Assembly: GCF_001815905.1 (NCBI RefSeq)
Contig: NZ_KV823268.1
Location: 1-64,000 of the forward strand
DNA length: 64,000 nucleotides
Direction of reading: 5' to 3'
Source of the DNA: Brevibacterium sp. HMSC07C04
GTDB lineage: Bacteria; Actinomycetota; Actinomycetes; Actinomycetales; Brevibacteriaceae
Positions within the stretch are counted from its first letter, which is position 1. The number at the start of each line of letters is the position of its first letter. Made by a program: the position numbers and the translations under genes. Under the pieces are notes generated by a model. It was not told where the DNA came from. It saw only the letters and a list, made by a program, of their open reading frames with translations, and did no database searches. Positions 110 through 50,160 of the stretch are shown here, piece after piece.

Positions 110-227
110 TTTTGCGGTGGTAAAAGCGTCAGGGAAACGCCCGGTCCCCATTCCGAACCCGGAAGCTAAGCCTGACAGCGCTGATGGTACTGCACACACG
201 TGTGGGAGAGTAAGACACCGCCGCAAC
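110..227 (+). rRNA. rrf: 5S ribosomal RNA
   Basis: Structural RNA of the large ribosomal subunit. The conserved core of actinobacterial 5S is plainly readable: the AAACGCCCGGTCCCATTCCGAACC-like block (here with one extra C) near 133-160, then GAAGCTAAGCC and GATGGTACTGC. The terminal helix forms between TTGCGG (112-117) and CCGCAA (221-226). The total of about 118 nt is normal. The ends are placed from the closing helix and may be off by one to three bases. Confidence 0.95.
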
Positions 228-48146: not shown

Positions 48147-48932
48147 TCAGATGCGGTAGTCGACCCAAACGGGCGCGTGGTCAGATGCTCCTTTGCCCTT
48201 GCGCTCTTCACGGTCGATGTGGGCGTCGACAGCGGTTGCGGCCAGAGCGGGTGAGGCCAGTTGGAAGTCAATGCGCATGCCCTCCCGTTTGGGGAAGCGC
48301 AGACGCTGGTAGTCCCAGTAGGTGTAGACGCCGGGGCCAGGAGTGAACTGGCGCGTGGTTTCCTTCAGGCCCGCGTCGGCGAGATTGCGGAATGCTTCGC
48401 GTTCGGGTTCGGACACGTGCGTCAGGCCGGCAAAGGCCTCCATGTCCCAGACGTCTTCGTCCAGTGGTGCGACATTGAAGTCTCCGACCATGACAAAGCG
48501 GTCGTCGGGGTCTGCGGCGAGCCGCTGTGCTGCGACATCGCGCAGGCGGTTCAGCCATTCGAGTTTGTAGTGGTAGTGAGGGTGATCGAGTTCTCGGCCG
48601 TTGGGCACGTAGAGCGAATAGACGCGCACCCCGCCGGTGTCGGCTGACAGTGCGCGCGCTTCGAGTGCATCGTTGAATTCGGGCATTCCCCGAAACCCGC
48701 TTTCGACATTGTCCAAGCCGACGCGGCTGGCGATTGCAACGCCGTTCCACTGATTGAGCCCGTGGTAGGTGACGTCATAGCCGCGGGAGGAGAAGATGTC
48801 TTCGGGAAACTGGCTGTCGCGGCACTTGAGTTCTTGAATGGCCAGGACGTCGACGTCTGAGCGGTCAAGAAAAGCCCCGATGCGCTCGGCGCGGGCTCGG
48901 ATCGAGTTGACATTCCAATTCACAATTCGCAC
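48147..48932 (-). CDS. xthA: Exodeoxyribonuclease III / AP endonuclease
   Basis: Mg-dependent nuclease that cuts at abasic sites and degrades 3' ends in base-excision repair. 261 residues, normal for ExoIII. Active-site residues are visible as WNVNSIRAR (Asn7), IQELKC (Glu34), GDFNVAP (Asp/Asn) and the terminal SDHAPVWVDY (Asp-His). First gene of a two-gene unit with the septum-formation-like gene. The upstream 637 bp are non-coding. Confidence 0.94.
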   Translation of the reverse strand: MRIVNWNVNSIRARAERIGAFLDRSDVDVLAIQELKCRDSQFPEDIFSSRGYDVTYHGLNQWNGVAIASRVGLDNVESGFRGMPEFNDALEARALSADTGGVRVYSLYVPNGRELDHPHYHYKLEWLNRLRDVAAQRLAADPDDRFVMVGDFNVAPLDEDVWDMEAFAGLTHVSEPEREAFRNLADAGLKETTRQFTPGPGVYTYWDYQRLRFPKREGMRIDFQLASPALAATAVDAHIDREERKGKGASDHAPVWVDYRI

Positions 48933-49098
48933 GAGGCCAGCCTAACGGCTGCCGCTGACACGGTCACGGGTGCTGTGCTCTGAAGGCGCATGTTCGCTCG
49001 TGCAGAAGCAGTGCGGACTGACAATAGGCGATATTTCGCGAAAATGCTGTCCGCATAGTGAAAATATGCAGACAAAAGAATTTTTATCTATGTAAGCT

Positions 49099-49215
49099 GA
49101 ATCACGTCTACTCGGTGGGGATCGAGTAGATCTCACGGACGTATGGGGATGCGTCCAGGTACTCGAGGGGAGTGCTCCGAAGGCCCGGCAGCTGACAGCC
49201 GGGCCTTCGATCGTT
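49099..49215 (+). ncRNA. Candidate small structured RNA with three G-rich loops
   Basis: Four hairpins in a row: TCTACTCG/CGAGTAGA (49107-49130, loop GTGGGGAT), GGACGTA/TGCGTCC with a wobble (49137-49156, loop TGGGGA), an ACTC/GAGT stem extended by weaker pairs (49158-49176, loop GAGGG), and a 12-bp terminator-like stem CGAAGGCCCGGC/GCCGGGCCTTCG (49178-49209). An AT-rich stretch with TATCTATGTAAG precedes it and could hold a promoter. The 5' end is a guess. I do not recognise a known RNA family; it resembles neither tmRNA, SRP RNA nor RNase P. Confidence 0.5.
49178..49209 (+). terminator. 12-bp GC-rich terminator-like stem
   Basis: Perfect 12-bp stem with loop AGCTGACA, followed by ATCGTTTGG. 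It probably ends the candidate RNA. Confidence 0.6.
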
Positions 49216-49248
49216 TGGTGGGTGAGCCGATTGCCCAAAAAACCCCGG

Positions 49249-49332
49249 TAGCAACAGATTCACGCGTTAGCCGAGATCCACCCGTTAGCCGCAAGAAAAC
49301 TCCCGATAGCCACAGATCCACGCCTTAGCAAC
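49249..49332. repeat. Three imperfect direct repeats (GATYCACSCSTTAGC)
   Basis: Units at 49249-49272, 49273-49290 (shorter) and 49307-49332 share GAT(T/C)CAC(G/C)C(G/C)TTAGC; the first and third also share TAGCNACA before it. The units are unevenly spaced, so this is not a CRISPR. Function unknown. Confidence 0.6.
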
Positions 49333-49360
49333 CACTGCTGGCGGGAGTTTTTGTTGCTAA
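49296..49360 (+). other. Crossing stems forming a potential pseudoknot
   Basis: AAAACTCCCG (49296-49305) pairs with CGGGAGTTTT (49342-49351), while TTAGCAAC (49325-49332), inside that loop, pairs with GTTGCTAA (49353-49360) outside it. Both stems are perfect (10 and 8 bp). They form either an H-type pseudoknot or two alternative hairpins; the second uses the last repeat unit. Confidence 0.5.
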
Positions 49361-49565
49361 AGCGCGGGCGGAGGCTCGTCAGGTGGAGACCCGGTGCCAA
49401 GGTGTCCGGGTGAAGCGGGGATAAAGCTCGCGATGTTGTTGTTGACTACCAGGTCCATTTCAGACGGGCAAACGGCGCACCTGCGGAGATGATCCCGTTC
49501 GTTCTTCATGCCGATGAAGCTGCCGGTGACCAGTAGCGGCGTTCTGCGTTCAGCCGGCTCGCGAA

Positions 49566-49571
49566 TACAAT
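49566..49571 (+). promoter_or_regulatory. pyrE -10 box, leaderless start
   Basis: TACAAT 7 nt before the ATG at 49579 implies transcription starting at the A of that ATG. This decides the start codon against the in-frame ATG at 49570, which would lie inside the promoter. Confidence 0.55.
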
Positions 49572-49578
49572 GGCGGCC

Positions 49579-50160
49579 ATGACCGACACACGTTCGCACG
49601 ATCCCGCGCAGACGCGCGAGGAGCTGCTGAGGCTCATCGACTCACTTGCAGTCAAACGCGGCAGCTTCACCCTGTCTTCGGGAAAGCAGGCCGACTACTA
49701 TCTGGACCTGCGGTTGGTGACTCTCGATCACCGGTCCGCACCACTCGTGGGCGACATCGTCCTTGACGTCCTCGAAGCCGAAGGCCTGCTGAGCGAGGTC
49801 GACGCCGTCGGCGGGCTGACAATGGGCGCCGACCCGGTGGGAACCGCCACCATGCACGCCTCGGTTCGCCGCGGCACCCCGCTGGATACTTTCGTGGTGC
49901 GCAAGCAGGCAAAAGAACACGGAATGGGCAAGCGTGTCGAGGGCCCGGACGTGCGCGGCCGTCGCGTCGTTGCCGTTGAAGACACCTCGACAACCGGCGG
50001 ATCGGTCCTCACCGCTGTGGAAGCCCTGCGCGAAGCCGGTGCGGAGGTCGTCGCCGTCGTCGTGGTCATGGACCGCAACACCGGGGCGCGCGAACGCGTC
50101 GAAGCAGAAGGCCTGCGCTATCTGACAGCATTGACCACCGCGGACCTCGGTCTGGACTGA
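49579..50160 (+). CDS. pyrE: Orotate phosphoribosyltransferase
   Basis: Joins orotate and PRPP to OMP in pyrimidine synthesis. 193 residues. Shows GSFTLSSGKQADYYLDLR near 28-45 and the PRPP loop VVAVEDTSTTGGSVL near 134-148 (acidic pair followed by small residues). MGADPVG near 83 is the other phosphate-site block. An ATG 9 nt upstream is in frame, but the -10 box position favours 49579. The ABC exporter genes follow 38 nt later on the same strand. Confidence 0.94.
   Translation: MTDTRSHDPAQTREELLRLIDSLAVKRGSFTLSSGKQADYYLDLRLVTLDHRSAPLVGDIVLDVLEAEGLLSEVDAVGGLTMGADPVGTATMHASVRRGTPLDTFVVRKQAKEHGMGKRVEGPDVRGRRVVAVEDTSTTGGSVLTAVEALREAGAEVVAVVVVMDRNTGARERVEAEGLRYLTALTTADLGLD

What the first reader, a model, noticed from the sequence alone, without database searches (positions are those of the whole stretch)
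49099..49215. Candidate new small RNA with three consecutive G-rich hairpin loops
In a 646-bp gap without genes, an AT-rich tract leads into three stems whose loops are GTGGGGAT, TGGGGA and GAGGG, then a 12-bp terminator-like stem. Repeated GGGG/GGGA loops recall decoy RNAs that titrate a protein, or RNAs that pair with C-rich targets. The complementary strand would show CCCC loops, distantly like the actinobacterial 6C RNA, but with fewer Cs. I do not recognise a family.
Basis: partly seen in the sequence, partly recalled or inferred. Interest (0 to 1): 0.7.

Follow-up and report, generated by a model that had tools for sequence, protein, structure and literature searches.

The report
Brevibacterium small RNA with G-rich loops
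An apparently undescribed small RNA, with its own promoter, three hairpins showing GGGG-type tips and a terminator, is kept almost letter for letter across nearly all species of the cheese and skin bacterium Brevibacterium and its sister genera; its targets are not known.

Summary
Window 49099-49215 (Brevibacterium, close to B. ravenspurgense) encodes three hairpins and a 12-bp terminator stem on the + strand (folding z = -5.9). A homologue lies in 49 of 57 genomes of the genus and in all three other genera of the family tested, and in no other genus I searched. Hairpin 1 and the terminator stem change by compensatory substitutions, while the GGGG tips and a 38-nt block covering hairpins 2 and 3 are nearly invariant (43 of 49 identical). 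A sigma-70-type promoter sits at a fixed distance upstream in most species, and the xthA-RNA-pyrE gene order is kept. Rfam has no match, and I found no paper describing it. It is therefore very likely a real, independently transcribed, family-restricted sRNA. 6C and CsrA were sought in the window genome and not found. My best mechanism is a trans-acting RNA whose G-rich hairpins 2-3 pair with C-rich stretches of mRNAs. Support is indirect: the invariant stems, plus lineage-specific complementary sites. No target conserved across the genus was found, and C-rich double sites are no commoner in RNA-bearing than RNA-less genomes, so protein titration stays open.

The parts
49060..49098 (+). AT-rich promoter region; in most relatives TTTACA-18-TCAAAT or similar, 5-6 nt before hairpin 1. 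In this window the match is weak (CAGACA, 16 nt, TGTAAG; 8 of 12)
   Evidence: 83% of 52 homologues have at least 9 of 12 consensus matches at this place, against 1.6% of shuffled upstream sequences
49099..49215 (+). small RNA gene, about 115-120 nt; exact 5' and 3' ends inferred, not measured
   Evidence: folding z -5.9; homologues in 49 of 57 genus genomes and 3 sister genera
49106..49131 (+). hairpin 1, 11 bp, tetraloop GGGG (49117-49120); stem varies with compensation, tip invariant
   Evidence: 6 of 11 pairs have changes on both sides
49137..49156 (+). hairpin 2, 8 bp, tetraloop GGGG (49145-49148); stem and loop nearly invariant
49158..49176 (+). hairpin 3, 7 bp, loop GAGGG (49165-49169); stem and loop nearly invariant
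49137..49174 (+). 38-nt block identical in 43 of 49 genus members apart from single changes; proposed pairing or binding region
49178..49218 (+). terminator-like 12-bp stem 49178-49209 with a weak U tract (ATCGTTT); stem covaries across species
   Evidence: 6 of 10 pairs with changes on both sides

Best explanation
This is a free-standing small RNA gene of the family Brevibacteriaceae (shown by comparison, not by RNA data). It is transcribed from its own sigma-70-type promoter and ended by an intrinsic-terminator-like hairpin (inferred from conserved sequence). The mature RNA shows three hairpins with G-rich tips. Most likely it acts in trans: the GGGG/GAGGG tips of hairpins 2 and 3 make first contact with C-rich stretches of mRNAs (UCCCCUC / AUCCCCA type), after which the stems open and pair further, so that stem and loop sequence of hairpins 2-3 cannot change (inferred). 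Hairpin 1 presents the same tip on a stem free to drift. Binding would block or expose ribosome binding sites or alter mRNA stability (inference, not tested).
For: Real RNA: homologue in 49 of 57 genus genomes and 3 of 3 other family genera, gene order xthA-RNA-pyrE kept; compensatory changes exceed all 500 shuffles and all slid controls; promoter at fixed distance; no Rfam match. Pairing mechanism: GGGG tips and the 38-nt hairpin 2-3 block are invariant while the hairpin 1 stem turns over, which structure alone does not require. Complementary sites: the NlpC/P60 5'UTR in G010 has UCCCCUC + CCCGGACGCAUCCC, complementary to hairpins 3 and 2 in antiparallel order (7 + 14 nt); its sister species G020 has 8 + 11 nt. 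A 3'UTR of a tusA-like gene in G046 has UCCCCUCGAG + CAUCCCCA. The translation start of a membrane-protein gene next to a histidine-kinase-like gene carries both C-rich boxes in six species.
Against: No target is conserved across the genus: NlpC/P60 orthologues of other species lack the C-rich sites, and no orthologous set emerged from ATCCCCA-near-RBS hits in 12 genomes. Double C-box sites outside the RNA locus are not commoner in RNA-bearing genomes (about 55 in 52 genomes) than in RNA-less ones (10 in 8). The best complementarity was found after the fact; a rough estimate of mine gives a few percent chance of one such match among the hits.
Confidence: 0.5

Rival explanations
1. Protein-binding decoy: the repeated U-GGGG-A tips are binding sites of an RNA-binding protein that the RNA titrates, as CsrB/RsmY RNAs do with CsrA.
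For: The same UGGGGA apex occurs on hairpins 1 and 2, with a similar GAGGGGA on hairpin 3, all invariant. Repeated identical tips on separate hairpins are typical of titrating RNAs (general knowledge). No conserved mRNA target found.
Against: CsrA is absent from the window genome and no other candidate protein was identified. Stems 2 and 3 are invariant in sequence although a CsrA-like protein would mainly need the loop; there are only three sites.
Confidence: 0.25
2. Sponge of another small RNA with C-rich loops (a 6C-like RNA).
For: The G-rich tips are complementary to C-rich loops in principle.
Against: No 6C RNA at E <= 0.001 in the window genome, none above Rfam cut-off in eight Brevibacterium genomes tested.
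Confidence: 0.08
3. Cis-acting leader (attenuator) of pyrE.
For: pyrE lies downstream in the same direction; in some species and one sister genus it follows within about 60-150 nt (L231, L117, L114, L098).
Against: In many species pyrE is 1.3-4.7 kb away, with other genes between, some on the opposite strand (L086, L105, L107, L108), while the RNA keeps its own terminator and near-identical core.
Confidence: 0.05
4. Short coding sequence or DNA-level palindromic site instead of an RNA.
For: A mechanical ORF starts at 49143, and the hairpin arms are inverted repeats.
Against: Spacers and terminator differ by 1-2 nt indels that break any frame, including one base between hairpins 2 and 3 in L049. 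Third positions do not vary in the core. Invariant U-G pairs and compensatory changes indicate RNA pairing.
Confidence: 0.03

Closest known systems
6C RNA (RF01066; B11 / MTS2823 in mycobacteria)
   Same: Actinobacterial sRNA with homopolymer-tipped hairpins. 6C/B11 uses C-rich loops to bind G-rich tracts in mRNA leaders (PMC10470900, which also cites Mai et al. 2019 on M. tuberculosis 6C)
   Different: Here the tips are G-rich on the structured strand, there are three hairpins plus a terminator, and the Rfam 6C model does not match. It works like a mirror image at most, and is not a member
CsrB/CsrC/RsmY-type CsrA-titrating RNAs
   Same: Repeated GGA-containing hairpin loops
   Different: Only three loops, GGGG tetraloops, no CsrA in the genome, no Rfam match
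Ms1 RNA of actinobacteria
   Same: Conserved actinobacterial sRNA
   Different: From general knowledge Ms1 is much longer and 6S-like. The Ms1 survey names Brevibacterium only in a list of genera that it singles out (PMC9130861, text cut off). Its described neighbours are HAD hydrolase and oxidoreductase genes, not xthA/pyrE

Membership tests
6C RNA (RF01066) | match to the Rfam covariance model above its gathering score | tested here: not met
6C RNA (RF01066) | two hairpins with runs of C in the loops | tested here: not met
   three hairpins with G-rich loops on the structured strand
CsrA-titrating RNA (CsrB/RsmY class) | cognate CsrA/RsmA protein encoded in the genome | tested here: not met
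   no PF02599 match in the window genome, controls positive
CsrA-titrating RNA (CsrB/RsmY class) | many GGA-bearing hairpin loops | tested here: inconclusive
   three loops, all containing GGGG or GGG followed by G/A
trans-acting bacterial sRNA (general kind) | free-standing gene with own promoter and terminator in an intergenic region | tested here: met
trans-acting bacterial sRNA (general kind) | conserved RNA secondary structure with compensatory changes | tested here: met
trans-acting bacterial sRNA (general kind) | a transcript of the predicted size | not testable with these tools
   no RNA-seq data at hand
trans-acting bacterial sRNA (general kind) | conserved complementary mRNA targets | tested here: inconclusive
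   lineage-specific sites only; no genus-wide target

The most novel reading that the evidence does not exclude
The RNA founds a class that uses repeated, invariant U-GGGG-A tetraloop hairpins either to capture C-rich mRNAs (a mirror image of 6C) or to titrate an unknown RNA-binding protein, in a genome where CsrA was not found.
Probability: 0.3. Interest if true: 0.7.

Novelty: new member of a known kind. Interest (0 to 1): 0.47.

Why it matters
I found no paper describing any small RNA of Brevibacterium in the library searched, and the family is absent from Rfam 15. A single-copy RNA whose 38-nt core barely changes across a whole family, while its neighbours and the hairpin 1 stem do, suggests a central regulatory role. 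Natural absence in one part of the genus offers a built-in comparison, and the G-rich tips make a simple loop-mutant experiment possible.

Tried and rejected
Rfam at gathering and at E up to 10: nothing meaningful. Weak model hits outside the family: the best one is inside a coding sequence (L216), another is a leader plus SD (L218), another a terminator (L222); a stray Acidobacteria pattern hit (L087) lacks the structure: all chance. Second weak hits in G021 and G046 are not paralogues; the G046 one read on the other strand is the tusA-like 3'UTR site. Search for ATCCCCA close to RBS and start in 12 genomes: no recurring orthologue. NlpC/P60 target followed to 19 other orthologues: C-rich sites not conserved, apart from one ATCCCCAC at about -30 in L281. 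Literature searches for Brevibacterium sRNAs: none found. Class- and phylum-wide model searches were not run; the exact-loop pattern over 85,000 genomes served instead, and it would miss relatives with changed loops.

Full report
Where it is. The window lies in contig C40 of a 2.47-Mb genome. Pattern matches with named records show that the relatives are Brevibacterium, the nearest being B. ravenspurgense. The feature sits between xthA (48147-48932, -) and pyrE (49570-50160, +).

Is it real? The + strand of 49099-49215 folds into three hairpins and a 12-bp terminator-like stem at -64.4 kcal/mol, z -5.9. The minus strand is weaker. A DNA search finds a homologue in 49 of 57 genomes of the genus, one per genome. 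A covariance model built from 15 of them (R1) finds it in all three other genera of the family that are held and, among 396 genomes of the order, nowhere outside the genus except weak hits that I inspected and judged chance. An exact-loop pattern over about 85,000 named genomes hits 36 Brevibacterium records and one unrelated Acidobacteria stretch, and no viral contig.

Structure. On 15 distinct sequences, 96% of cells form standard pairs, 13 pairs change on both sides, and the covariation score beats all 500 shuffles and all slid versions. Nearly all the covariation is in hairpin 1 (6 pairs) and the terminator (6 pairs). Hairpins 2 and 3 hardly vary: the 38-nt block GGACGTATGGGGATGCGTCCGGGTACTCGAGGGGAGTG is identical in 43 of 49 genus members, so for these two stems there is conservation but little covariation evidence. 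The apical element U-GGGG-A is shared by hairpins 1 and 2. In the sister genera the pairs beneath it in hairpin 1 change together, supporting a GGGG tetraloop. Invariant U-G pairs would be A-C mismatches on the other strand, so the + strand is the RNA.

Transcription unit. In 83% of 52 homologues a sigma-70-like promoter (typically TTTACA-18-TCAAAT) ends 4-8 nt before hairpin 1, against 1.6% of shuffled upstream sequences with equal score (simple base shuffles, and related sequences are not independent). In the window itself the match is weaker (8 of 12). The terminator has a weak U tract here and a better one in many relatives.

Context and history. xthA (-), RNA (+), pyrE (+) are kept, but genes have been inserted between the RNA and pyrE in many species, some on the opposite strand, so it is not a pyrE leader there. 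Eight genus genomes lack it. In those whose pyrE locus could be read there is nothing convincing in the region. In an xthA tree the four RNA-less species tested lie inside the genus, with sister genera that have the RNA outside (part of that region of the tree is unresolved). With the presence in sister genera this means loss rather than late gain.

Not known. Rfam 15 gives no match. 6C is not found in the window genome nor above cut-off in eight Brevibacterium genomes. CsrA is absent from the window genome. No paper on it was found. The library holds open-licence papers only, so absence from it is weak evidence.

How it may work. The accessible conserved parts are G-rich tips, which cannot pair with Shine-Dalgarno sequences but can pair with C-rich mRNA. 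Because stems 2 and 3 are as invariant as the loops, their sequence, not only their pairing, seems to be used, as expected if they open to pair with targets, or if a protein reads them. I looked for double C-rich sites in target order (TCCCCTC...ATCCCCA) across 60 genomes. Apart from the RNA's own antisense there were about 55 in 52 RNA-bearing and 10 in 8 RNA-less genomes: no enrichment. Some single cases are striking. The 5'UTR of a secreted NlpC/P60 peptidase in G010 and its sister species G020 has 7+14 and 8+11 nt of complementarity in the right order. A tusA-like 3'UTR in G046 has 10+8 nt. In six species the start region of a membrane-protein gene next to a histidine-kinase-like gene carries both boxes. 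But NlpC/P60 orthologues elsewhere lack the sites, and no orthologue set emerged from an RBS-focused pattern. Target pairing therefore remains an inference (about 0.5), with protein titration the main rival (about 0.25).

Verdict. The finding is a genuine, new sRNA family at the level of comparative evidence. Its kind (bacterial small regulatory RNA) is known, and its mechanism is open.

Noticed in passing
window 49245-49365: Downstream of the RNA in the same gap lies a stretch of repeated TTAGC/GCTAA units (e.g. GATAGCCACAGATCCACG); a related copy is at L002:1430-1535 elsewhere in the genome. Looks like a dispersed intergenic repeat.
   Followed up: partly
window 113-226: 5S rRNA gene; no tRNA or tmRNA gene found in the window.
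   Followed up: no
L245 and L137 (G010, G020): NlpC/P60-type secreted peptidase gene downstream of a gene whose product end looks like a resuscitation-factor-type protein; its 5'UTR is rich in CCCC motifs complementary to the sRNA.
   Followed up: partly
L238 and L261 (also G018, G036, G039, G041): Membrane-protein gene next to a histidine-kinase-like gene whose ribosome binding site is flanked by TCCCCTC and ATCCCCA boxes, the latter at different positions in the two species groups.
   Followed up: partly
genomes G001, G013, G015, G034, G037, G038, G054, G055: Brevibacterium genomes in which neither the DNA search nor the model found the RNA; G013 and G054 also gave only very weak PyrE matches, so these may be incomplete or oddly placed.
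   Followed up: partly
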